Source of the DNA: Tremella fuciformis
Taxonomy: Eukaryota; Basidiomycota; Tremellomycetes; Tremellales; Tremellaceae
Direction: 5' to 3'
Length of the DNA: 64,000 nucleotides
NCBI GenBank assembly: GCA_032768795.1
Contig: CP136496.1
Span: forward strand, 1,984,001-2,048,000
Below the pieces are notes generated by a model, which was given only the letters and a program-made list of their open reading frames with translations, was not told where the DNA came from and searched no databases. Shown here piece by piece: positions 21,222-43,791 of this stretch. Each line of letters starts with the position of its first letter. Within the stretch, counting starts at the first letter, position 1. A program made the translations under genes and the position numbers.

Positions 21222-23015
21222 GATGCTGAATCGGAATTTTTCCGCCTCTCATATTCAGCCTGGACTGCCGATTTGACCTCTGAAGAGCTGAGAGGCTGTC
21301 GCATCCAGAGATTCTGCTTTGTAGTTGCATATGACTCAGGGAGAGCAAGAGTCATGCAGAATGCAAGGATTTTATCGGATATAATTTCGCCTGAGCTGTT
21401 CAGCTGGGTGTGGGCGCTCTGTTGGGCTGCTAGGACCGGCATTGGATCTTCTCCATCGATAATTGAAGCTCTGGCAAGCGATTGGAATAAAGCGGCCTGC
21501 CTGGCACCGGTTGAGGCTGAATGCTGCCGCTTAATTTCGTCCCAAAGAGCCTTGGGTGAGGGCGATGTCCAGTCTTTGACTGAGGCTGGCAGGGCGGCTT
21601 GGACGGTCTCAGAGAGCGACTGAAAGATGATGGAAAAGGCCTTATCGAATTTGAGCTGTTCTGCAGCTGAAATTGGCGAAATCGGTTCGGTTCTGATGCA
21701 GGCAAGCAGTCCCTTGCCCATGAGGGTGGTGGCGATATGCGATTCCCATTGAGGATAATTATCGCTGCCTTTCAAAGTAACAACTTTGATTTTGATTTCG
21801 CTCTCCTCCATTTCCAAAAAATTATTTCTCAAGAACGGCTCGATCAAATTCGGTTTTGTTGATAGGGATGATAGAGGCCGTTGCGAAGTATATTGTGTGC
21901 AAAGGAGAGATTTTAAATATCCGGGTGTCAGCTGCAATCGCAAAAGTTTGAATGAGACTCTCAGAGAGACTCAGCTGAAAGCGAGAGCAGCTTGAATTGC
22001 CAGAAGGCTCAGAGGCTGCCCACCAGGTTTCACTGGATTCTGCGGCCACCGGAACGGTGTACGACCTCCTGGGTGCTCCACCAAGCCTGGGAATCGGCCC
22101 AAGGTTTGATTTCTGCAGAGCCAGGTCCGGATTTGCTTGAACTCCCTCGGTGTAACCTAGACCGGCCAGGACGTTTGCCTTCACCTGCCAAGCCCAGCAG
22201 GCCGCGATTTCGCCCAGCGATAGGGCAGAAGCAATGATGTTGAGAAATCGGAAATCCGATTTCAGGAATGATGGAATTACTCGAGAACAAGTCGGCCGAT
22301 TGTGCTCTGCCGGTGCTGAAATATAGCCTGTAGTGGCCCCTATGTTGTGTGGGAACGGCAGGCGGATCGGTGGAGTAATGGGCGAGAAATCGATTTCCTG
22401 GTGTTGGAAGACTCAACTCCAAATTTGCAGTTTGCCGAAATTGATAAATCGATATCTCGGGAACGGTACTAGCTGCCGGGCTGTGCTTTACCGTGACGAT
22501 GGATCCAACAACAGACGGTGCTGTGTAAAACGGAGAGATCGATCGGGTGGCTAGATCGCGAGAAATTGTTGAAGTTGTGAACGTCCGTTATCCCGGCCTT
22601 CTGTGAGTGCTGGACTCTTCAGGGGCCGTAAGACGTGTGTTCGCACTGTAGAGAAAGTGCTGTGTTCTTCTGGCGCTTGTAGGTGAAGCGACAGAGATGG
22701 TAGGTAGGGAGGAGGGTAGCCGGAAACCGAGTATTTGGCAAAGGCGATTGCGGGTGAACCGCTGAAGCTACCGAAAATCCGAGGGTACCTCGTGAAAGAG
22801 CGCGTCGAGCTCTATTGGGTCACTTGTCGGCAGGCGAATCGGATGCGATTCAGGCTCATAACCTGTCGGATGATATGAAGTGCATAAGACATGTTCCCTG
22901 CTCAGAGAGCAGGAAAAGCGACGCTATAGAGTTTCCTTATGTAATAGGAAAGGGCTAGAAGCGATGTTGCAGTGTGGCAGTGTGGCACAGATCAGGATTG
23001 CTCACAATTCCGACA
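21222..23015 (-). mobile_element. Copia copy C3: gag N-terminus, leader and 5' LTR
   Basis: Holds the 5' LTR (22864-23015), leader, and the first ~196 codons of gag (ATG at 21811 down to 21222, broken at ERRKNSDS). The 1,794 bp match C5 19158-20951 at a constant offset of 2,064, with no difference in the parts I compared. The right flank (gattc) is plus-strand C2 gag. The frame that runs from gag into the C4 LTR is chimeric. Confidence 0.85.
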
Positions 23016-25130: not shown

Positions 25131-25281
25131 TGTCAGAATTGTGAGCAATACTGATCTGTGCCACACTGCCACACTGCCACATCGCTTTCAGCCCTTTCCT
25201 ATTACATAAGGAAACTCTATAGCGTCGCTTTTCCTGCTCTGTGAGCAGGGAGCTTGTCTATGCATTTCATATCATCCGACA
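25131..25281 (+). repeat. 5' LTR of C9
   Basis: 151 bp, TGTCAGAATTG...ATCCGACA; clearly diverged from the 3' LTR of the same element. Confidence 0.92.
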
Positions 25282-30412: not shown

Positions 30413-30816
30413 TGTCACGGGGCCTGGCCGGTCGTCGACTGATAGGCCCTCTCACACGTGCTGTCTGTCAATCTGTCTCTGTCCTCCACGAGAAGGTGTG
30501 TCCTACAGCCTCTCGTGCGTCGACAACACGGCTGCGCCGTTACTTTCTATCCATGGGACTCAATACCACGGTGCTAAGGACGGTCTACGGGTGAGGGCTT
30601 GTATATATATCACCCGTGCCCTCCTCTGCACCGCCTTGGGCTTTCTCCTTGAAACACCATCGACGAGGCTCGAGCTCTAAAGTCGTCGAGGCTACTCGAG
30701 CGTCGTCGAGGCTACTCGAGGATCGACGATAGGCTCACGTGTTTGACAGGCGTGCTGGGCTGGAACGAGGCTCGTAGGCGTGCTTTGGTGATCATGGAGG
30801 CGTGGCCGACGTGACA
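30413..30816 (-). repeat. 3' LTR of G1
   Basis: 404 bp; pairs with 39050-39453. Contains a TATA run at 30602-30610 and repeated CGTCGAGGCTACTCGAG blocks. Confidence 0.95.
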
Positions 30817-30830
30817 CTCTGCCCCCCTCT
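30817..30830 (-). promoter_or_regulatory. Polypurine tract of G1
   Basis: On the minus strand AGAGGGGGGCAGAG directly abuts the 3' LTR, as expected for the plus-strand DNA primer. Confidence 0.85.
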
Positions 30831-31434
30831 GAAATCGAGCTCCTGCGAGATGGCGGGCGAGGCGGGGCAGCTTGTATGGCCTGAGCCTTTGCTCCCGCCT
30901 CGCGCTAAGCCGTATCTTTTGGTCATTCCTCGCAGGGCTGATCCCGAGGGTCTGTGGGTGTGTAAGCAGGGCCTGGTCTCGTCGACGGTCCGTCCTTCTT
31001 GGTCGCTCGAGGTCTCGCGCAGCTGGTGCTATCTTTCTAGGCGCTAGTCGGGGCGTAGGCTGTGTTGCCGTTGTGGAGTGACTAACGGGCACAGGTAGTG
31101 TGCAGCCCGCATGTGTCCCGACGCGCGTGGTGTCGAGGGTGATCCCTGTGCTGGATAGCCCGCCCGTTGCTGAGCTATAGGCGTCTCATGCTGGAATTTG
31201 CGCGTATGTAAGTCGACCTCGAGTCGACCTCGGCCACGAGGCCGGGGTCAGATTGCCCAATGCGGCAGTCGCCGCGAGATAACCGGTGATTGCCGCTCCG
31301 CGCTACGCCCTTCTGTCGATCATGTTGCTCGTTGCTAGGCAACAAGTCGCCAAACTGTCGTGAAAAGTCGTGTTGCCTGCTCTCGTCGTCAAGTGCCCTC
31401 TCGTCCCTCGTCCCCGCCATGTCCCCTCCAAAAG
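30831..31434. other. Non-coding segment of G1 upstream of the antisense gene
   Basis: About 600 bp with no convincing coding frame. It would be the promoter region of the plus-strand gene below and the 3' untranslated region of the minus-strand genomic RNA. Confidence 0.45.
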
Positions 31435-31442
31435 GTATAAAC
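31435..31442 (+). promoter_or_regulatory. TATA box of the antisense gene in G1
   Basis: GTATAAAC lies about 65 bp before the ATG at 31502, which leaves room for transcription to start near 31465-31475 and a leader of about 30 nt. Inferred from position only. Confidence 0.55.
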
Positions 31443-31501
31443 CCCCTCTCGACGAGGCTACTCGTCCCGTCCATTCCAAACTCTCCACTCCAACGCATCA
31501 T

Positions 31502-33757
31502 ATGTTCTCCAACGCCACCGATCCCTCCCTCAAAATCGTCCTCCGAGGACGACCTCTACGCCTGGTCACGATGACCAAAACCCCTTCCCCCAGCCCCACG
31601 ACGCCGCCATCCTCCCCCGAGTCGGCTGTCGACGCTCCCCCTCCTCGACTGTTCCCTCGATGGGCGGTCCATCCTCGAACTCCGGAGCCCACACCGGTCG
31701 AGGAGATCGACGAGCTCGTCAATGAGCTCGACTGGTCGGATGCGGCCAGTGCTGCGCCAAGCGGTGAGTGATTGTTGAGCCACCCTACTGCTTGTATTGA
31801 TGCCCAGGGCGTACAGCGATTCTGCGCTCGCTAGCAGACATACACGCCGAGATCCGTCGGCACCAGGGGACCGTCAGAGCCGCTAGGGAGAGTAGCTGTG
31901 CTACCTCCTCTACGTCCAGCGGCTACTCAGACGCCTCGCCCCCGTCTTCCCAGGCTTCCGACGCGGCTTTCGCTGGCGAGAGTCGCTATCGAGAAGCCCA
32001 CTCCTTGCCGTTCGAGCCGGCCTCGCCTCGGCCTCTTCGCCCCTACATTGGTGGTGGGACCGGATCCCCCATCATACCGCCCTATCCCCTCGTCCCCCTC
32101 GGCTCGCCTATCCTTCTCCTTCCCCCGCCTTCTATGCCTCCGCCTTCTATGCCTCCGCCATCCCGCTCTCCGACTCCGGCAATCAACCCACGCCGCCGGC
32201 GTCGAGTCGAGTCGCCCGGTTCCCCAGGCAACACTCCCCTGCCAACGATACCGCCTCCCCTCTCCCCAACCCCAAAGCGTCGTCGCGTGTCGCCTGTTGG
32301 CGGCATGTACTCCTCTCGCCTGCGTTCAGCCTCAACCCGGTATCTTGGGGTGTCTGAGGTAGCCGATGCTCTCCCGGCCGCCGTGGACAACGCAGGTGTA
32401 GGAGAAGACGTCGTGGAGGGGAGCATCTCGACGGGAGACGGATCCGAAGCGGGCAGCGAAGGATCCGTTGGGGAATCCGAAGCGGGCAGTGGAGGATCCG
32501 ATGGGGAGGGAAGCGAGGCGTTGTCGAGGCTACTCGAGGCTGGCCCTCGAGTCCGGTGTAGGAATGCGCTGGACCGCGCCTTTTTCGGTACGTCCGCCAT
32601 CTGTTGAGGTCCCCGCTCATTCCCAGGGCCATTCTACCCGACGTTCGGCCGGGGATCGAATAGGACCCTCCCATGGGCCCTGGTGCGTTGTTGTCTTCTA
32701 CTCTCCAGCCTCTCACGCTGATCTTGCAGGCTCAGGCAAAAGGGCGACCTCTCCGCACGCTCAACGGCCGCCAGCGATGCCAGCGGTGTCGTTCGGACAA
32801 CTTGCCGTGTAGGGTCCTAGATGGAGGCGGGCCGAAGTTGAAGTGCTACACCTGTGGCACAGCCTCAGGTTGCTCGTTCAACTCCAGCCCGACTCCTCGA
32901 CGACCCGCCGGCTCGTCCTCGACACCCAGAGCTCGCCGGGCTGTGAGTGTCACGATGCTGCGCTCTCCCGTTGGCAGAGGCCCTCTCGCACAATATCAGA
33001 GTCAAGAATAAAGGATAAAGGGGTAGAAACGAGGATGTCGAGGTAGGATCCTCGTCGAGGTTGGATCCTCGTCGAGGTTACAAGGTCGTCGAGGTAACAA
33101 GGTCGTCGAGGATACAGCGTGAGTGCGACTCAGCCACGCTGCGTGCCACGGAGAGAGTGAGATCGTCAATGGTGATCCATGAGACTCAATCAGAGAGTGC
33201 TGAAGAACTACGACGGGCGCCCGGGGCATCCTATATGACTCTGCGCCTGCTTCCCGTCGTCGCGCGTTCATCCAACGTCTACTCCCTCGTCGAGGTTCTC
33301 CAGCCCGAGGTAGGTCACGTGTCGGCCACGTGAGAGGTGTCGGTCACGTGCGTAGGTTGTCGAGGGCGTGGCCGTCGTGACAGTGAGCTTCGCGGATGTC
33401 GACCCGCCTTCGCCGACTCCCGCCCCCACGCCTGTTGTCGGCCCGGCCGCCTTCACCGACCGACTTCGCCGGTCGGTTCGTCAACCCGTGCCGGCTCCCG
33501 TGCCGCCTCCGACGCCGCCTCCGGTGTCGACTCCTGCCCGCCCATCCGCGCCAGCTCCCTTGTCGTGGACTCCCTCGACGAGGCTCGACATCGGTGTCCT
33601 TCAGCACCATGTCACGCTGGCCCAGTCCATCCCGGCGGACAGGGCGTACCACGTCGAGGAGGCGAGGCGGCACGCGAGGCTCCTGGGGCTGGACCTTAGG
33701 GCGATGGTCGGGCCCATGTTCGACAACGTGGTGGAGGCGAGTGGTTCGGGGTCGTGA
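31502..33757 (+). pseudogene. Antisense accessory gene of G1, four exons, Zn-cluster protein, broken by solo LTR
   Basis: Exons 31502-31763, 31808-32587, 32627-32682 and 32730-33757, with the last exon split by a solo LTR (32948-33382). The three introns (44, 39, 47 nt) have GT-AG ends; the third has a CTGAT branch-like site. Omitting introns, LTR and one TSD copy leaves 1,686 nt, an exact 562-codon frame, which supports the model. The protein is rich in Pro, Ser and Asp/Glu and mostly disordered. Near residue 380 it has C-X2-C-X6-C-X11-C-X2-C-X5-C, close to the fungal Zn2Cys6 (GAL4) spacing, preceded by basic residues. The C-terminus is more ordered (YHVEEARRHARLLGL). It is convergent with pol (stop at 33898). 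No known gypsy protein matches. It may be a captured host gene or a regulator; function unknown. Confidence 0.7.
32948..33382 (-). repeat. Solo LTR of a G1-related family
   Basis: 435 bp beginning TGTCACG and ending CGTGACA, flanked by the 5 bp duplication gtgag (32943-32947, 33383-33387). The first 45 bp and last 20 bp resemble the G1 LTR (CCCTCTCGCAC; GGCGTGGCCGTCGTGACA) but the middle differs, so it comes from a related family. It contains a degenerate tandem array of GGTCGTCGAGG-like units near 33030-33115. A full element must have inserted and then been lost by LTR-LTR recombination. Confidence 0.85.
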
Positions 33758-33897
33758 ATGTAGATAGTGTACATAGTTCTTTCTTAGCTCATGTTCATAT
33801 GCCGTGTTGTTCATGTTGTACAGGGGATGCAGGGATAGGACTCAGCTTGGGTGACAAATCTCGATCCAGATCATCGTCACCGCCAGTAGTCCATGCG

Positions 33898-36800
33898 TTA
33901 TATTCCTCTTGGTTTCCCTGGGTTCCTTTTGTGGAAGCTCTCGACGCTTTCGAGAGCACCAGTAATGTTCTCCACTGGTTCCCAGGTCGTCTCCTCATCT
34001 GTTCCTTTGTACCCCACCCACTCGACGAGGTACTCCACCTTTCTGCCCCTTTTCCTCGAGTCGACGACGTTCTTCACCTCATAGCTAGGGCCCTCGTCGT
34101 CGACCTCCACTGGTGGCGGAGGGTCGTAGGTCTGTCCAGGGATCCTCGGCGGGTGGTATGGCTTAAGACGGAGGACGTTGAAGACCGGGCTCACCCTCAT
34201 CGTCGCCGGCAGCTCCAGCTTGTACGTTGATGGACCCGTCTTAGCGAGGATTTTGTATGGTCCCCCCCATTTGATGTCGAGCTTCTTCGAGGGTCGACGA
34301 GTCTTGATGTTCTCCATCGACAGCATGACCATATCATCCACCTTCAACACTGGCGCATCCCTTCTCTTTGCATCGTAATACTTGGCGTACCGCTCATTGG
34401 CTTGCTGTATGGCTTGTTGACAAGATCGGTGCACCTCGTCGAGGGACCCAAGCTTTTCCTTGACCGACGGTATCTCCGCTCGCTCGGCGCTCTCTCTCAA
34501 GTCATCAGTCCATCGCGGCGAGTACCCAAAGTTCGCCTCGAACGGGCTCATCTTGATCGCCGAGTGCTGGGTATTGTTATAGGCGAAGGCTGCTCTCTGC
34601 AGCAGACTCGACCAATTGTCTTGTCTGTGATCGCAGAATACCCGTAGGTACTGCTCGAGGACCTGATTAACTCGCTCTGTCTGCCCGTCGGTTTGGGGAT
34701 GGAAGGCTGTCGACAGGCTGATCTTGATCCCCAGGGCCCCACACAGTGCTCCCCATAGTCGACTAGTGAACTTGCTCCCTCGATCAGATACGATGGATCT
34801 TGGCAACCCATGCTGCGCTACGACATTGTCGATGATGAGGTCGACGAGTCCCGCCGTTGTGAGGCGAGTCGTTGTCGGCACGAAGATAGCCCACTTCGTC
34901 AGGCGGTCTACCACGACGAGGATGGAGTTGAAGCCCTGACTGCCGGGGAGCTCCTCGATGAAGTCCATGGAAATTGCTTGCCACGGGCCTTCCGGGACTT
35001 CGAGACTCTGGAGGAGACCATGAGGGCGCTGCCTGCTTGTCTTTGTCCTCTGGCAGATGGCACAACCCTGTACGTAGGCCTCAACATCGCGCCGCAGCCC
35101 CAGCCAACAGACGTCCCTCCTGAGCAACTCCAACATCTTGGTGATTCCCGGATGTCCCGCTAGGATCCCCTCATGTCGATCCCTTATGGCTCGGAGCCGC
35201 CCATCGCCCTTGCCAGTGAGGTATAGCCGCCCATTGAGTCGCAGGGCCCCGCCAGGCTCTACCTTGGCTCGTGTGGGCTCGTCGAGGCCCATCCTTTGAA
35301 CCAACCCAAACAGCTTGGGGAATCCCGCCGCATCAATCACCACTCCGTTCTCCTCCTTCTTGATCCTCTCCAACTCTTCTCCAGCGTGCTCGAATTCCTC
35401 ATCCTCCTCCCAGGTGCTCCGAGTACCCGTCTGCGGATCCTCTCTTGCCTCTGGATCTGGACTCGACGAGCCTCGTCGAGGCTCCTCGATGAGTGCCCGA
35501 AGCATGTACCCCAGCGACGTCTCGACCTTGCTTCCTTGGTCAAACCCAGGTAAGGCCTGCACTCGTTGCTCCTCCAGGTCCAATCCATCAGGCTTGTAGT
35601 CAGGCCTCCTCGACAGAGCGTCTGGGTAAGCCGCTTTGAGCCCGGGACGATACACGATTCGGAAGGAGAATCCTGCCAGGGCGTCGACCCATCGCGCAAC
35701 CCGCCCACTCAGTTTCCTCGGCTCCATCCAATAGCTGAGGTTGTGATGATCCGTGAGGACCGTACAGCTTACTTGCAGAAGGAGATGTCGCTTCCGCTTG
35801 AACGCCATCACTATCGCCAGGAACTCCTTCTCTGTAGTCGTCCAGTTCAACTCTGCCCCCGAAAACGACCCAGATTCTATGGCCACCGGGTGCTCGAGGC
35901 TCGTCGAGGGGTTAATCTGTGATATCACAAATCCCCACCCGTAGAGCGAAGCATCGGTCTGCACGATGGTCTCGAATGCAGGGTCGAAATGGGCCAATAC
36001 AGGGGGCTCGCTCATTCGCCTTTTGATCTCTTCGAAGGCTCTTGCCTGCGCGTCTCCCCAACCAAACGGAACTCCCTTCTTTGTCAGCAACACTAGGGGC
36101 AGCGCTACCTTGGCAAAGTTTGGTACGAAGCGGCGGTAATAGTTTGCCAGACCCAAGAACCGGCGTACTTCGAGCAGGTTGCTCGGTGCTGGGAAGTCCA
36201 CGACGCCTTTCACATACTCCGGATTCGCTTCCACGCCTTCTCGGGAGATGACAAAGCCCAGGAAGTCGACCTTCCTCTTCTCGAACTCGGATTTCGACGC
36301 TTTCACGTACAGTCCCGCCTTTCGCAACGCCTCGAGTACCGCCTTTGTGAGGGAACGAAGCTCGTCGAGGCTCTTGGCGTGGACCAAGATGTCGTCGATG
36401 TAGATCACCACTCCTCGCCCAACGAACTCTCTAAGCACCTCGTTGAGGAAGTGCTGGAATACTGCTGGCGCGTTCTTCAAGCCATCTCGCACTACCAGGG
36501 ACTCGAACATCCCCAGAGGCGTCCTAAAGGCGGTAAAGGCTTCGTGTCCTGGCGCCATGCGAAGAAGCTGGTATGCTCCCGGTAGGTCGAACTTGGTGTA
36601 CCACTCTGACTCTGCCAGATCGGCTGTGACTTGGGAGATCAACGGCAAGGGGTACGCGTCCGACACGGTTGCTTCGTTGAGCTTTCGGTAATCCACCACC
36701 ATTCGCCATTCTCCAGGAATCTTCTTAGGAACGAAGAAACTCGGCGACCCATACGCTGCATTCGATGGCCTGATCTTGCCCGCCGCTTGCTCTTTGGCGA

Positions 36801-37968
36801 GGAGATCCCTGAGCGCCCTCATCTGCTCCGGCGACAGCTGGTAGAGCGGTGCGACCCTTAGTTCCGCGCCTTCCTTCAGTCTGATCCGTAGGTCGTATTC
36901 CCTACTCGGCGGAAGCGTGTCGGCGGGTCGACGAGGATGGAACACATCGAGGAACTCATGGTAGTACTCCGGGACAACCCTTCGCACCGCCTGAGACTCC
37001 TCCTCTGACAGGGTATACTCGTCGAACCCAAGGTGCCCATCCAAGCGCCCCACCACTTCCTCGAGCTCGTCGGTGACAGTCGCTCTTAGTCGTTCTGCGG
37101 CGAGTCTGTTCTGCTCCCATCGGTTGATCCGCAGAGGGATGTGGTTTGGAGAGCGCCTGCGCGAAAGCCGCACGCGTTCCCCTTTTTCTCTTCTCGCTCT
37201 GGTAGCCAAAATGGCCAATTCACTTGTAGCAGCCTCGACGACCGTCGACGAGGCTACCTGTTCTGCTCCACGGGTGACTTCCATAGCCCCCATGTCCATG
37301 ACTATTTTCTTTCCTTGCATCCAGTCGTACCCTAGCACGACGTCTGCACCTGCGAGCCGCGTAACCGCTAGCCGTTCCTCACTTGTTTCCCCAAGCGCCT
37401 CCACGGGAGCCATCACTTCGTGGGTGATTTCCCCCGCAGATGACGGTTCGCCGTCGAACAGGAGAACCTTCCGGGGCCGTTCCAACATTTGTTGGGTCAT
37501 GCCATGGCCTTGCGCGTAGTCCTGATCAATGAAGGTCCCGCCAGCGCCCGTATCCAGCAGTATGCAGGCGGCCGTTCCGTCCACCTTCCCTGCTACGACA
37601 GCTTGATGCCTTCCGAGCCTGCAAGCCTCACCGCTCATGCATTCCTCAGCATCACTAGCACTCTGTACAGACTCCTTCGAAGACCCCAGGTCCTCTGCTT
37701 CTTCTTCATATTGATCTTCCTCGACGAGGGAAGCGGACCCCGTCGAGAGTGGTTGAGTGGGCGATGGATTAGAGGATTTGGGAGGTGAAGTCGGGTGTTC
37801 AGGAGGTGTGAGGGCGGAGAGTGTGTATGGAGCGGGGCCTCGAGTTTCTCCTTGTAGCTCGGGACCCCTCAGGCTTCCCCCTGCGGCTCCTGCTTCACGC
37901 GTTGGCCGGGATTGAACGAGCCTGGGCAGTCGCGCGCAAGATGCCCAGCGTTTCCGCACTTGAAGCAA
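33898..37968 (-). CDS. Gypsy pol polyprotein with chromodomain (G1)
   Basis: 1,356 codons open from an ATG at 37968, overlapping gag by 100 bp in the -1 frame, so translation is probably by frameshift and not from that ATG. Order: aspartic protease (LLDTGAGGTFID near residue 138); reverse transcriptase with YIDDILV near 525; RNase H (QTDASLYGWG; TDHHNLSY); integrase with HHCC zinc site (HPGITKML ... CAICQRTK) and DDE core (SMDFIEELPG, VSDRGSKF); and a C-terminal chromodomain (YEVKNVVDSRKRGRKVEYLVEWVGY ... TWEPVENI, split here for length) near 1285-1345. RT before integrase defines Ty3/gypsy. The chromodomain would direct insertion to heterochromatin, fitting its position inside other repeats. 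No stop seen. Confidence 0.95.
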   Translation of the reverse strand: MLQVRKRWASCARLPRLVQSRPTREAGAAGGSLRGPELQGETRGPAPYTLSALTPPEHPTSPPKSSNPSPTQPLSTGSASLVEEDQYEEEAEDLGSSKESVQSASDAEECMSGEACRLGRHQAVVAGKVDGTAACILLDTGAGGTFIDQDYAQGHGMTQQMLERPRKVLLFDGEPSSAGEITHEVMAPVEALGETSEERLAVTRLAGADVVLGYDWMQGKKIVMDMGAMEVTRGAEQVASSTVVEAATSELAILATRARREKGERVRLSRRRSPNHIPLRINRWEQNRLAAERLRATVTDELEEVVGRLDGHLGFDEYTLSEEESQAVRRVVPEYYHEFLDVFHPRRPADTLPPSREYDLRIRLKEGAELRVAPLYQLSPEQMRALRDLLAKEQAAGKIRPSNAAYGSPSFFVPKKIPGEWRMVVDYRKLNEATVSDAYPLPLISQVTADLAESEWYTKFDLPGAYQLLRMAPGHEAFTAFRTPLGMFESLVVRDGLKNAPAVFQHFLNEVLREFVGRGVVIYIDDILVHAKSLDELRSLTKAVLEALRKAGLYVKASKSEFEKRKVDFLGFVISREGVEANPEYVKGVVDFPAPSNLLEVRRFLGLANYYRRFVPNFAKVALPLVLLTKKGVPFGWGDAQARAFEEIKRRMSEPPVLAHFDPAFETIVQTDASLYGWGFVISQINPSTSLEHPVAIESGSFSGAELNWTTTEKEFLAIVMAFKRKRHLLLQVSCTVLTDHHNLSYWMEPRKLSGRVARWVDALAGFSFRIVYRPGLKAAYPDALSRRPDYKPDGLDLEEQRVQALPGFDQGSKVETSLGYMLRALIEEPRRGSSSPDPEAREDPQTGTRSTWEEDEEFEHAGEELERIKKEENGVVIDAAGFPKLFGLVQRMGLDEPTRAKVEPGGALRLNGRLYLTGKGDGRLRAIRDRHEGILAGHPGITKMLELLRRDVCWLGLRRDVEAYVQGCAICQRTKTSRQRPHGLLQSLEVPEGPWQAISMDFIEELPGSQGFNSILVVVDRLTKWAIFVPTTTRLTTAGLVDLIIDNVVAQHGLPRSIVSDRGSKFTSRLWGALCGALGIKISLSTAFHPQTDGQTERVNQVLEQYLRVFCDHRQDNWSSLLQRAAFAYNNTQHSAIKMSPFEANFGYSPRWTDDLRESAERAEIPSVKEKLGSLDEVHRSCQQAIQQANERYAKYYDAKRRDAPVLKVDDMVMLSMENIKTRRPSKKLDIKWGGPYKILAKTGPSTYKLELPATMRVSPVFNVLRLKPYHPPRIPGQTYDPPPPVEVDDEGPSYEVKNVVDSRKRGRKVEYLVEWVGYKGTDEETTWEPVENITGALESVESFHKRNPGKPRGI

Positions 37969-39011
37969 AGGCCCTGGCTGCCTCGCCTCTCGTGTTCGTC
38001 CGGAGTGAGCCTAGGGCAAGGAGGGTAGACTCGTCGAGGGGCTGCAGCGGGGTTGAGACTCGACGAGGTTGTCGGGCCAGGTGAGGGTCTGGGGTTCGTC
38101 GCCGGCGCTCCGACCTCTGACGTAACCACCGTAGATCCGCCGTTGTTGCCGCCCAGTCCAGTCTTCTTCTTTTCTCGCCTGCCCTCCGCTTTGTTCTTCT
38201 CCGCCTCCCTTGCTCGCAGACTGTTGTCGAGGCGCACCACAAACGCCTGCAGCTCGGCAAAGGTCTCGAACTCCTTGGGATGCCGGGCTACCTCGTCCTG
38301 AAGCACGTCGGAGAGCCCTTCCTTGGCACAAGCCGTTGCTTGCTCGTCGAGCTCCCATGAGAGGACTGACGTATACTCCCGAATCTTGGCGAAGTACTCG
38401 GCTGCCGACCCTGTCTGCCGCAGCGAGAAGTACTTGCGTCGAGCAGTCCCCTTCGCGTCGGGATCCCCAAAGTTCTCGCGCAGGTAGCGACGAAGCCCAG
38501 CATAAGTCCGAATTTTCTCGTCGAGGTAGTCGCCCGCCTCGACATGCTCTCCGTTCTCGTTCAAGTTGCTGTCTCGCCCTGTCGCCAAGGGCTGAATTGC
38601 GTCGAGCACGAACCCCCTGAGGAACGAGATCACATACATGACCTTGTGCGTGTCGCCAGAGAACTTCGACGGCTGCAGCTTGAAGACCGTCTCGCACTGC
38701 ATGATGAACCGCTCCAAGGCGGCTGGATCCTTGCCGTTAAACGTGTCAGGCGGGTTCGCCTTCGGCTCGGAGGGGTTCCCAACGCCAGGCGAGCCTTGCC
38801 GTTGCTGCGCCTGCTGCTCGACGAGGGCCGCCTGAAGCTGCACGATCTGCGCGAGCAGCTGCTGCACAGACGGCTGATCACCCAAGGGTTGGGCCATGTT
38901 GGTCGCGGCGGCTCTCAGTCGAGTATCCACCGGTAGTCGTAGGTTTGTGGGTAGAGCAATGTGCTGATGCTCAGGATCTGTCGACGTGATTCGTCGAGTC
39001 GATGGTGCCAT
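37869..39011 (-). CDS. Gypsy gag (G1)
   Basis: 380 codons from the ATG at 39011, 39 bp downstream of the 5' LTR. It has the conserved capsid fold region (PDTFNGKDPAALERF; LRENFGDPD; RQTGSAAEYFAKIREY) in the middle and one CCHC zinc knuckle (CFKCGNAGHLARDC) near residue 352. The stop at 37869-37871 follows a run of five G on the coding strand (37877-37881), a possible -1 slippage site into pol. Structural protein of the virus-like particle. Confidence 0.94.
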   Translation of the reverse strand: MAPSTRRITSTDPEHQHIALPTNLRLPVDTRLRAAATNMAQPLGDQPSVQQLLAQIVQLQAALVEQQAQQRQGSPGVGNPSEPKANPPDTFNGKDPAALERFIMQCETVFKLQPSKFSGDTHKVMYVISFLRGFVLDAIQPLATGRDSNLNENGEHVEAGDYLDEKIRTYAGLRRYLRENFGDPDAKGTARRKYFSLRQTGSAAEYFAKIREYTSVLSWELDEQATACAKEGLSDVLQDEVARHPKEFETFAELQAFVVRLDNSLRAREAEKNKAEGRREKKKTGLGGNNGGSTVVTSEVGAPATNPRPSPGPTTSSSLNPAAAPRRVYPPCPRLTPDEHERRGSQGLCFKCGNAGHLARDCPGSFNPGQRVKQEPQGEA

Positions 39012-39033
39012 GAACTAGTCGTGTGAGAGGTAG

Positions 39034-39047
39034 TAGCACCGTGGTAT
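39034..39047 (-). promoter_or_regulatory. Self-primer binding site of G1
   Basis: On the minus strand ATACCACGGTGCTA starts 2 nt after the LTR end. It is the exact complement of minus-strand TAGCACCGTGGTAT within the LTR (39213-39200), which lies about 30 nt downstream of a TATA run (39239-39247) and so at the predicted transcript 5' end. This is the layout of Tf1-type self-priming, where the first nucleotides of the RNA fold back as primer. No tRNA-like TGG start is seen. Confidence 0.75.
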
Positions 39048-39049
39048 AC

Positions 39050-39453
39050 TGTCACGGGGCCTGGCCGGTCGTCGACTGATAGGCCCTCTCACACGTGCTG
39101 TCTGTCGATCTGTCTCTGTCCTCCACGAGAAGGTGTGTCCTACAGCCTCTCGTGCGTCGACAGCACGGCTGCGCCGTTACTTTCTATCCATGGGACTCAA
39201 TACCACGGTGCTAAGGACGGTCTACGGGTGAGGGCTTGTATATATATCACCCGTGCCCTCCTCTGCACCGCCTTGGGCTTTCTCCTTGAAACACCATCGA
39301 CGAGGCTCGAGCTCTAAAGTCGTCGAGGCTACTCGAGCGTCGTCGAGGCTACTCGAGGATCGACGATAGGCTCACGTGTTTGACAGGCGTGCTGGGCTGG
39401 AACGAGGCTCGTAGGCGTGCTTTGGTGATCATGGAGGCGTGGCCGACGTGACA
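39050..39453 (-). repeat. 5' LTR of G1
   Basis: 404 bp. In the minus direction: TATATATAT at 39247-39239, presumed transcription start near 39213, end at 39050. Flanked by TSD gtgcc on the right. Confidence 0.95.
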
Positions 39454-39458
39454 GTGCC

Positions 39459-39579
39459 ACACTGCCACACTGCCACATCGCTTCCAGCTCTTTCCTATTA
39501 CATAAGGAAACTCTGTAGCGTCGCTTTCCTTGCTCTCTGAGCAGTACAGATGTCTCTATGCACTTCATATCATCCGACA
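39459..39579 (+). repeat. 3' LTR of C9, second part
   Basis: Remaining 121 bp of the copia LTR after G1 and its TSD, ending ATCCGACA. Compared with the 5' LTR of C9 it differs at many sites, e.g. CTTCCAGCTC versus CTTTCAGCCC. Confidence 0.92.
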
Positions 39580-39871
39580 GAAGCTGTGTAAATTGCAAAA
39601 GCGATTGCGGGTGAACCACTGAAGCTACCGGGAAACCGAGGATACCTCGTGAAAGAGCGCGTCGAGCTCTATTGGGGCACTTGTCGGCAGGCAAATCGGA
39701 CGTGATTCAGGCTCATAACCTGTCGAATGATATGAAGTGCATAGAGAGAGTTCCCTGCCCACAGAGCAGGAAAAGCGATGCTACAACTCTGAAACATTTC
39801 AGGGGAAGGAGTAGAAGCGATGTGGCAGTGTGGCAGTGTGGCAGAGATCAGGATTGCTCACAATTCCGACA
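39580..39871 (-). mobile_element. Copia copy C1: leader fragment plus 5' LTR at the host boundary
   Basis: Minus-strand leader (39580-39720), iMet primer site and a 151 bp LTR (39721-39871, TGTCGAATGAT...ATTCCGACA on plus). The right flank cgccg starts non-repeat host-like DNA, so this is the outermost element of the nest. The rest of C1 is not in the window; it should lie to the left, beyond C2. Confidence 0.88.
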
Positions 39872-42428: not shown

Positions 42429-43791
42429 ATGCCCAGAACATCCGCCCGAGAGGATCTGCTGCGAAAAATCGACGCGTTAATTGCCCATTTGGCCCATTAT
42501 CGCATCTCATCCTCAGCCCGACGGTACCTTCGGGTCCTCCTCTTACACCGTCACAAGATCCTCAGTTCTCGCTATTCCAATCGATCCGACTACCAGGACG
42601 TCATCCCCGTCCATAAGCCCGACTCCCTAGCTGTCATTCACATGGATATGAGCGCTCAACATCACCTACACGCCTTCCGAATGACCCCGAAGGAAATGGA
42701 CCGTTTGGTCGACCTGTTTGGTGATCATGAGGTCTTTAAGAGCTTTGGGAGGCGTCCGCAAGCCCCTCCAAGGGTCCAGCTGGGTGTATTGGTCCATAGA
42801 CTGGCCCACGGGCACTGTACATCGACTATAGCCCGCACATTTGGGCTGTCCCGTGAGCATCATTGATCTCTCGCAATTTCCTTCTGTGGTGTCTGCCCGC
42901 TGAAGGTGTCAGGTGGCTCGATCCATCATTATACCGTGCGCAGCGCGATCGCCATTGCGTCCCGCATGTCCACATACATCTCCTGGCCGGATCCGGAGCG
43001 TCGGGCCATCATCAAAGAGCGCATTTTTGACGAACATGCGATTCCTCATTGCCTGGGCTTTATCGACGGTATCAACATCAACCTTGATGTCGCCCCATCG
43101 CAAGGCCCGGCCGCTGGGAGCTATCACAGCCGCAAGGAGAGGTATGGCTTCAACATGCTTGCAGTCTGCGATCACCAGAAGCGTTTTACCTTCATACATT
43201 GGGGCTTCTCCGCCAGATCGTCCGACATGCGGTTGCAGGCTGCATGCGGGCTCGAGGCCAGCCCGGACGATTTCTTCGCTGCTGGCGAGTTTATCCTGGC
43301 CGACTCGGGCTTCAAATGCACACCCACCATCATACCAATGTTCAAACGTGCGCCGGGACAATCCGAACTGACTGGCAGAAGGGTATTCATGCGGTTCCCA
43401 ACATGACATCGAAGGAAGGCTGATCTATCAGGAATTCTTCAATACGAAGGCCTCTCCCGCGCGGGTAAACATCGAGCACGCCTTCGGCATCCTCAAGGGG
43501 CGCTGGCAGATGCTGCGGAACGCCCGCATGAGGCTCAAGACACCGAGAGACGAAGCCCAGGCCTACGCGATGATCCAGGCCGCATTCGTCCTACATAACC
43601 TCACCATCTCCACCTACGACCAGTTCCTCACCGCTGAAGATCTACGGGCCTCTTGGGGCATCGAGGCGGTCGTCCCCAATGACTTTGAGACCAATAGGAA
43701 CTCATATGAGAGTATGAGAGAGAATCACGTCCGCCGCGAACAGCTAGTGGATGACATGTTGTCCTATGAACCATCGCTTCTCTCAGGATGA
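42429..43791 (+). CDS. PIF/Harbinger DDE transposase
   Basis: Exons 42429-42852, 42913-43382 and 43432-43791; introns of 60 and 49 nt. Total 1,254 nt, 417 aa, with continuous frame. The N-terminal part carries the helix-turn-helix region (VLVHRLAHGHCTSTIARTFGLS, split at the first intron). The catalytic triad is visible: D in GFIDGININL, D in ILADSGF, E in VNIEHAFGILKGRW. The first intron uses the second of two nearby AGs (42912), which restores the FGLS-x-GSIHHYT motif. It cuts and pastes the element together with the Myb-like partner. Second intron donor GTATTC is weak, so that boundary is less sure. Confidence 0.88.

What the first reader, a model, noticed from the sequence alone, without database searches (positions are those of the whole stretch)
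31502..33757. Spliced antisense gene with a GAL4-like zinc cluster inside a chromovirus
Seen: between pol and the 3' LTR of G1, on the strand opposite gag-pol, three short GT-AG introns join four frames into an exact 562-codon reading frame once a solo LTR is discounted. A TATA box lies 65 bp before the ATG. Known: some plant gypsy elements carry antisense ORFs, and fungal transcription factors use Zn2Cys6 clusters with near-identical cysteine spacing. Inference: G1 carries an accessory regulator, either captured from the host or long resident, that could control element or host transcription. Introns on the antisense strand would not be removed from the genomic RNA, so the gene can be copied with its introns.
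Basis: partly seen in the sequence, partly recalled or inferred. Interest (0 to 1): 0.88.

Follow-up and report, generated by a model that had tools for sequence, protein, structure and literature searches.

The report
Spliced antisense gene in fungal retrotransposon
A jumping gene in a fungus carries, on the strand opposite its own replication genes, a small extra gene with introns whose protein sequence has been kept by natural selection in two related jumping-gene families; what the protein does is not yet known.

Summary
G1 (30413-39453, minus strand) is a chromovirus; between pol and its 3' LTR, on the opposite strand, lies a four-exon gene (31502-33757). In this copy exon 4 is split by a 435-bp solo LTR (32948-33382), so this copy is broken. 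Elsewhere in the genome 19 of 25 scored G1 copies have the gene open from ATG to stop; 25 of 25 keep GT-AG at all three introns. Intron lengths change by 1-2 nt while coding length stays a multiple of three (L029, L036). dN/dS between diverged copies is 0.19-0.24; other frames give 0.34-2.3. The solo LTR belongs to a second chromovirus family, G2 (pol about 66-71% identical), with a homologous antisense gene at the same place and two introns at matching positions and phases (9 of 13 scored copies open). So: a real, long-resident, probably spliced accessory gene. 'GAL4-like' is not supported: six cysteines are conserved, but spacing and Pfam speak against Zn_clus; no host donor was found. Antisense accessory genes at this position are known (Grande, RIRE2, Retand; Botrytis Boty brtn); the shared introns and six-cysteine protein make it a new variant. 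Best reading: a nuclear regulator of the element. There is no transcript evidence.

The parts
30413..39453 (-). G1 chromovirus, about 9.04 kb, TSD GTGCC on both sides
   Evidence: LTR pair and flanks; domains
30413..30816 (-). 3' LTR of G1 (404 bp, TG...CA), preceded on the minus strand by a purine-rich tract
   Evidence: 99.5% identical to the 5' LTR
39050..39453 (-). 5' LTR of G1
37869..39011 (-). gag (CCHC knuckle)
33898..37968 (-). pol with RT, RNase H, integrase, chromodomain (protease-like region below Pfam cut-off)
31436..31441 (+). TATA box of the antisense gene
   Evidence: TATAA in 8 of 9 aligned sequences
31502..31763 (+). antisense gene exon 1 (ATG)
31764..31807 (+). intron 1, 44 nt, GT-AG, phase 1 (46 nt in L036)
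31808..32587 (+). exon 2, with basic clusters NPRRRRRV and PKRRRV (possible nuclear signal) and an acidic/Ser stretch
32588..32626 (+). intron 2, 39 nt, phase 1, same place as the first intron of the G2 gene
32627..32682 (+). exon 3, 56 nt; PFYPTFGRGSNRTLPWAL, resembles the 59-nt G2 mini-exon SHYPDRGQRGYNRSLTWAR
32683..32729 (+). intron 3, 47 nt (48 in L029, L032, L033; 45 in L036), phase 0, same place as the second intron of the G2 gene
32730..32947 (+). exon 4, first part, up to the inserted LTR
32778..32873 (+). six-cysteine cluster C-x2-C-x6-C-x11-C-x2-C-x5-C
   Evidence: alignment A2: five cysteines in 12 of 12, the second in 11 of 12
32948..33382 (+). solo LTR of family G2 inserted into exon 4; target duplication GTGAG 32943-32947 and 33383-33387
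33388..33757 (+). exon 4, second part after the target duplication: Pro-rich linker and C-terminal predicted helices, stop TGA

Best explanation
G1 carries a real antisense accessory gene with introns and its own promoter just inside the 3' LTR. The gene was probably present in the common ancestor of at least two chromovirus families of this fungus. Because splice sites are read only on the antisense strand, the sense genomic RNA keeps the introns and passes the whole gene through reverse transcription (inferred from strand logic; introns are present in every copy scored). The product is most likely a nuclear, zinc-binding regulator of the element's own transcription or silencing, working like HBZ of HTLV-1 or the gene23 product of maize Grande, not a replication enzyme and not a captured GAL4-type factor. 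Shown: gene structure, conservation, selection, matching introns in two families. Inferred: transcription, splicing, nuclear site, zinc binding, regulatory role.
For: 19 of 25 scored G1 copies open; GT-AG at all three introns in 25 of 25; intron lengths differ by 1-2 nt in diverged copies while coding length stays a multiple of three (L029: intron 3 of 48 nt, open; L036: 46/39/45 nt). dN/dS 0.19-0.24 for the five G1 pairs with dS above 0.2, 0.38 for L009/L029, and 0.11-0.24 for five G2 pairs; in the one pair per family tested in all six frames the annotated frame is lowest (0.215 against 0.34-2.28; 0.234 against 0.34-1.79). Introns are less conserved than exons in 4 of 5 diverged copies. G2, with pol 66-71% identical, has the homologous antisense gene at the same place with two introns in matching positions and phases; 9 of 13 scored copies open. 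Five cysteines kept in 12 of 12 and the sixth in 11 of 12 across G1, G2 and the relic G3. TATA region conserved. Basic clusters and acidic stretches in both families.
Against: No RNA evidence. The only database relative, P0001, reads straight through intron 3, so it comes from DNA or unspliced RNA. No recognised DNA-binding or regulatory domain; fold models are weak (mean pLDDT 62 and 63) and match nothing significantly. Four near-identical G1 pairs carry too few changes to show selection: 0.97, 1.55, 0.39 and one without synonymous change. In L031 introns are slightly better conserved than exons, 94.6% against 92.2%. Two diverged copies with a 48-nt intron 3 (L032, L033) are frame-disrupted elsewhere. 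pol is more constrained than this gene, 0.04-0.12 on the fragments compared.
Confidence: 0.6

Rival explanations
1. The antisense transcript matters as RNA (double-stranded RNA with the genomic RNA, silencing or copy-number control) and the protein is secondary.
For: The transcript would be complementary to the 3' part of the genomic RNA; a review proposes this for plant elements (PMC7264820).
Against: Codon-level purifying selection in one frame and intron length changes with coding length kept are not expected of a purely RNA function.
Confidence: 0.12
2. The protein serves the particle or the pre-integration complex (for example nuclear import) and does not regulate transcription.
For: Basic clusters in both families; zinc-binding basic proteins often bind nucleic acid (recalled); the review discusses such a role for these proteins (PMC7264820).
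Against: A separate antisense promoter would uncouple its dose from gag-pol; nothing ties it to particles.
Confidence: 0.17
3. A captured host Zn2Cys6 (GAL4-type) transcription factor.
For: Six cysteines with all but the last gap in the Zn2Cys6 range (rule recalled); the fungus has many such factors (143 PF00172 matches); Foldseek lists HAP1 at rank 3 of 4 with E 9.5, which is noise level.
Against: No Pfam Zn_clus match for any member at E<=10; last gap 4-5 instead of 6-8; no basic run between cysteines 2 and 3; 0 of 143 Zn_clus places within 3 kb of 58 antisense-gene places; no host copy recognised among 64 own-genome matches.
Confidence: 0.06
4. Chance open frame with splice-like sites.
For: S/P-rich low-complexity protein; GC-rich sequence with few stops; no database relative apart from P0001.
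Against: Frame-specific dN/dS, coding length kept across intron length changes, and the same gene with matching introns in a second family.
Confidence: 0.02

Closest known systems
Boty-like chromoviruses of Botrytis cinerea with antisense gene brtn (Zhao et al. 2011, not held; known here from its cited title and from passages of PMC8365987 and PMC4227169 and the read parts of PMC7264820)
   Same: Fungal LTR element with chromodomain in gag-pol and an extra gene antisense to gag-pol, placed between pol and the 3' LTR
Plant antisense accessory ORFs: maize Grande gene23, rice RIRE2, Silene Retand (PMC7264820 parts 1-2 of 3 read; PMC11963269 passages)
   Same: Same place and orientation; in most copies of a family; Grande gene23 has its own promoter and a nuclear product; Retand TRP28 domain predicted to bind DNA
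   Different: Retand has the TRP28 domain (PF04195), which nothing here matches; the words intron and zinc do not occur in the main text of PMC11963269
HTLV-1 HBZ and the APH proteins (PMC3185765, abstract and passages)
   Same: Antisense gene at the 3' end of the provirus, spliced antisense transcripts, nuclear regulator: the working analogy
   Different: Transcript starts in the 3' LTR itself; HBZ is a bZIP protein; unrelated virus and host
VANDAL VANC anti-silencing proteins (PMC5735166, abstract and outline only)
   Same: Element-encoded protein acting on its own family's silencing: one possible function
   Different: Transposons of Arabidopsis; no relation shown
Fungal Zn2Cys6 (GAL4-type) factors, PF00172
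   Same: Six cysteines, all gaps but the last in range
   Different: Last gap short, no basic run, not recognised by the profile

Membership tests
Chromovirus (Metaviridae) | RT, RNase H, integrase and a C-terminal chromodomain in Pol | tested here: met
   Pfam RVT_1, RT_RNaseH, rve, Chromo over cut-off
Chromovirus (Metaviridae) | Two LTRs TG...CA, target duplication | tested here: met
   2 differences in 405 compared columns, TSD GTGCC
Antisense accessory genes of LTR elements (aORF-3R) | Between pol and 3' LTR, antisense to gag-pol | tested here: met
   G1 in the window; G2 in L065
Antisense accessory genes of LTR elements (aORF-3R) | Present and open in most copies | tested here: met
   19 of 25 scored G1 and 9 of 13 scored G2 copies open; not all copies of the genome were scored
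Antisense accessory genes of LTR elements (aORF-3R) | Own antisense promoter and transcript | tested here: inconclusive
   TATA conserved in 8 of 9; no RNA data
Retand-type TRP28 proteins | PF04195 domain | tested here: not met
   No family at E<=10 for the full G1 (L009) and G2 (L065) proteins; none for exon 4 of 10 copies or the window pieces at E<=1
Boty brtn | Sequence homology to brtn | not tested
   No brtn sequence at hand
Zn2Cys6 (PF00172) | Six conserved cysteines | tested here: met
   Five in 12 of 12, one in 11 of 12
Zn2Cys6 (PF00172) | C-x2-C-x6-C-x5-12-C-x2-C-x6-8-C (rule recalled) | tested here: not met
   Last gap 5 (G1, G3) or 4 (G2)
Zn2Cys6 (PF00172) | Profile match | tested here: not met
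   0 of 12 members at E<=10, 0 of 2 full proteins; positive control 143 matches in the genome
Zn2Cys6 (PF00172) | Gal4-type fold | tested here: inconclusive
HBZ-like retroviral antisense regulators | bZIP domain | tested here: not met
   No Pfam family at E<=10; the APH relatives of HBZ also lack a classical bZIP (title cited in PMC3185765)
HBZ-like retroviral antisense regulators | Represses sense transcription; nuclear | not testable with these tools
   Needs expression data

The most novel reading that the evidence does not exclude
Fungal chromoviruses carry a dedicated lineage of multi-exon antisense genes, kept with their introns through retrotransposition, that encode a previously undescribed six-cysteine nuclear regulator; the element thus has a two-transcript control circuit like HTLV, and the regulator modules can be exchanged between sub-families.
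Probability: 0.35. Interest if true: 0.8.

Novelty: new variant of a known kind. Interest (0 to 1): 0.6.

Why it matters
Antisense accessory genes of LTR retrotransposons have no settled function, and a review asks for attention to antisense and spliced transcripts (PMC7264820). This family offers many near-identical natural copies, two families with a shared gene structure, strong evidence of selection and a compact fungal genome, so the question 'what does the antisense gene do for the element?' becomes testable. It also shows how an intron-bearing gene can live in an element that passes through RNA: put it on the other strand.

Full report
1. What is there. The window holds a 9.04-kb chromovirus, G1, on the minus strand (30413-39453; LTRs of 404 bp, 2 differences in 405 compared columns; target duplication GTGCC). 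gag (37869-39011) has a CCHC knuckle; pol (33898-37968) has RT, RNase H, integrase and a chromodomain over cut-off and a protease-like region below it. Between the end of pol and the 3' LTR, on the plus strand, runs a gene of four exons: 31502-31763, 31808-32587, 32627-32682 and 32730-33757, with introns of 44, 39 and 47 nt. Exon 4 of this copy is cut by a 435-bp solo LTR (32948-33382) flanked by GTGAG. This copy of the gene is therefore broken.

2. Is it real? I used the rest of the genome (28.14 Mb, 11 contigs; counts are lower bounds because 40 of 207 candidates were scored). Twenty-eight further stretches with G1 gene sequence were fetched (L009-L036; L037 turned out to hold LTR sequence, not the gene). 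Twenty-five hold the gene start and all three introns; 19 of 25 are open from ATG to TGA, 6 are disrupted, 3 partial ones were not scored. GT and AG stand at all three introns in 25 of 25. In diverged copies the introns change length by 1 or 2 nt (intron 3: 48 nt in L029, L032, L033; L036: 46, 39 and 45 nt). L029 and L036 keep a coding length divisible by three; L032 and L033 do not and are among the disrupted ones; L036 has an early in-frame stop. Coding length kept across non-triplet intron changes points to splicing.

3. Selection. Nei-Gojobori dN/dS for G1 pairs with dS above 0.2: 0.193, 0.228, 0.215, 0.233, 0.240; L009/L029 (dS 0.05) 0.378. Four near-identical pairs have too few changes (0.97, undefined, 1.55, 0.39). 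For L009/L036 the other five frames give 1.21, 2.11, 0.95, 0.34 and 2.28, and for the G2 pair L065/L066 1.43, 1.79, 1.41, 0.34 and 1.77; the 0.34 is on the reverse strand in the frame whose third positions coincide with those of the gene (my reading). pol fragments of comparable pairs give 0.04-0.12, so the accessory gene is less constrained than pol but clearly behaves as protein-coding. Introns are less conserved than exons in L029, L032, L033 and L036 (for L036 72% against 82%); L031 is the exception (94.6% against 92.2%).

4. A second family has it too. The solo LTR that interrupts the window copy is the LTR of another chromovirus, G2, whose pol is about 66-71% identical to that of G1. A protein search of the own genome with exon 4 gave 64 matches at E<=10; 23 of them form a set at 52-54% identity, of which 11 were fetched and proved to be G2. 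In G2 the gene again lies antisense between chromodomain and 3' LTR (L065). It has three exons; its two introns (40 and 39 nt) sit at matching positions and the same phases (1 and 0) as introns 2 and 3 of G1, around a similar mini-exon (56 and 59 nt). Of 13 G2 copies scored 9 are open at 505 codons with the stop; L066 has a stop, L067 is decayed, L069 is interrupted, L071 lacks the 5' part. dN/dS for five G2 pairs: 0.107-0.237. A third, decayed relative (G3, L068, with one partial second copy, both on contig C10) also has the cysteine cluster and a G1-like N-terminus. The gene is thus older than the split of G1 and G2, unless it was exchanged between them.

5. The protein. 556 aa in G1 (L009) and 504 in G2 (L065); Ser/Pro-rich, with basic clusters, acidic stretches, a six-cysteine cluster and a C-terminal region predicted helical (residues 135-192 of exon 4, block pLDDT 60-91). 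The cysteines read C-x2-C-x6-C-x11-C-x2-C-x5-C in G1 and C-x2-C-x6-C-x10-C-x2-C-x4-C in G2. The Zn2Cys6 rule (recalled) wants 6-8 in the last gap and a basic run after the second cysteine; neither is met (G1 RSDNLP, G2 VTDDLP). Pfam gives no Zn_clus for 10 or 12 members or the two full proteins at E<=10; the best weak hit is zf-HIT, E 0.21, in 4 of 12. As a positive control the same Pfam family finds 143 places in this genome, none within 3 kb of 58 antisense-gene places. After the cluster 11 of 12 members keep V-[ST]-F-A with a basic residue, arginine, two or three positions before the V, which resembles a PP1 docking motif (recalled; short motifs are often chance). No database relative other than P0001, identical over exon 4 and reading through intron 3.

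6. How it most likely works. The gene has a TATA box 61-66 bp before the ATG inside a conserved 200-bp stretch. The antisense pre-mRNA could be spliced; the genomic sense RNA could not be at these sites, so the gene is copied with its introns. That step is inferred from strand logic; every copy scored has the introns, which agrees. The product looks like a nuclear factor. I commit to a regulator of the element's transcription or silencing (0.6), working like HBZ (PMC3185765, abstract and passages) or Grande gene23 (PMC7264820, parts 1-2 of 3). Rivals: particle or pre-integration role, antisense RNA effect, captured factor.

7. Known or new. Antisense extra genes at this place are known in plants and in Botrytis Boty (brtn). 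New here, as far as the listings of the ten paper searches show, are introns shared by two families, a six-cysteine protein without known relatives, and direct evidence of selection over many copies. Hence 'new variant of a known kind'. Limits: one genome; no RNA; host species unknown; brtn not compared.

Noticed in passing
31448-38817 in the window; L072, L073, L074: Palindrome CTCGWCGAG: 18 in the window, 15 in G1's own sequence and 3 in the inserted G2 LTR, none in the first 30 kb (mostly Copia) or in 40.5-64 kb. In gag 5 and in pol 8 against about 0.6 each after synonymous codon shuffling, 0 of 1000 shuffles reach it; weaker in G2 pol pieces, 1 and 2 against 0.2. Genome 3824 against 909 for the reversed control. 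An unrelated Copia element (L074) has four per LTR at 16-20 bp spacing plus nine in its coding part. Unexplained.
   Followed up: partly
L065 against L066: In this G2 pair the antisense coding region is about 80-88% identical per 200-bp block while the LTR and antisense promoter side is 95-98% and pol 93-96%; dS 0.50 in the gene against 0.23 in pol. Looks like exchange of the gene module between sub-families; one pair only.
   Followed up: partly
own genome contigs C9, C10, C11 (2.1 Mb together): They hold 13 of 58 antisense-gene places but 0 of 143 Zn_clus places; about 11 would be expected by length. Possibly accessory or TE-rich chromosomes.
   Followed up: no
L068 (C10:733000-737500) and C10:32905-33581: Decayed third relative of the gene (G3) without a recognisable G1-like pol within the 4.5 kb fetched; only one partial second copy at 95%.
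   Followed up: partly
about 31310-31400, upstream of the antisense ATG: A stretch with the inverted repeat GTTGCTAGGCAAC is unchanged in 9 of 9 aligned copies, also in the 79%-identical L036; may be a promoter element or serve the sense RNA.
   Followed up: no
39454-39871: The right flank of G1 matches repeats beside the window's Copia elements (25158-25248, 22723-22926, 22947-23015), so G1 is probably nested in another repeat; the left flank was not compared.
   Followed up: no
42906-43406 plus strand: ORF with DDE_Tnp_4 domain (PF13359, E 8.7e-16): a DNA-transposon or domesticated transposase gene.
   Followed up: no
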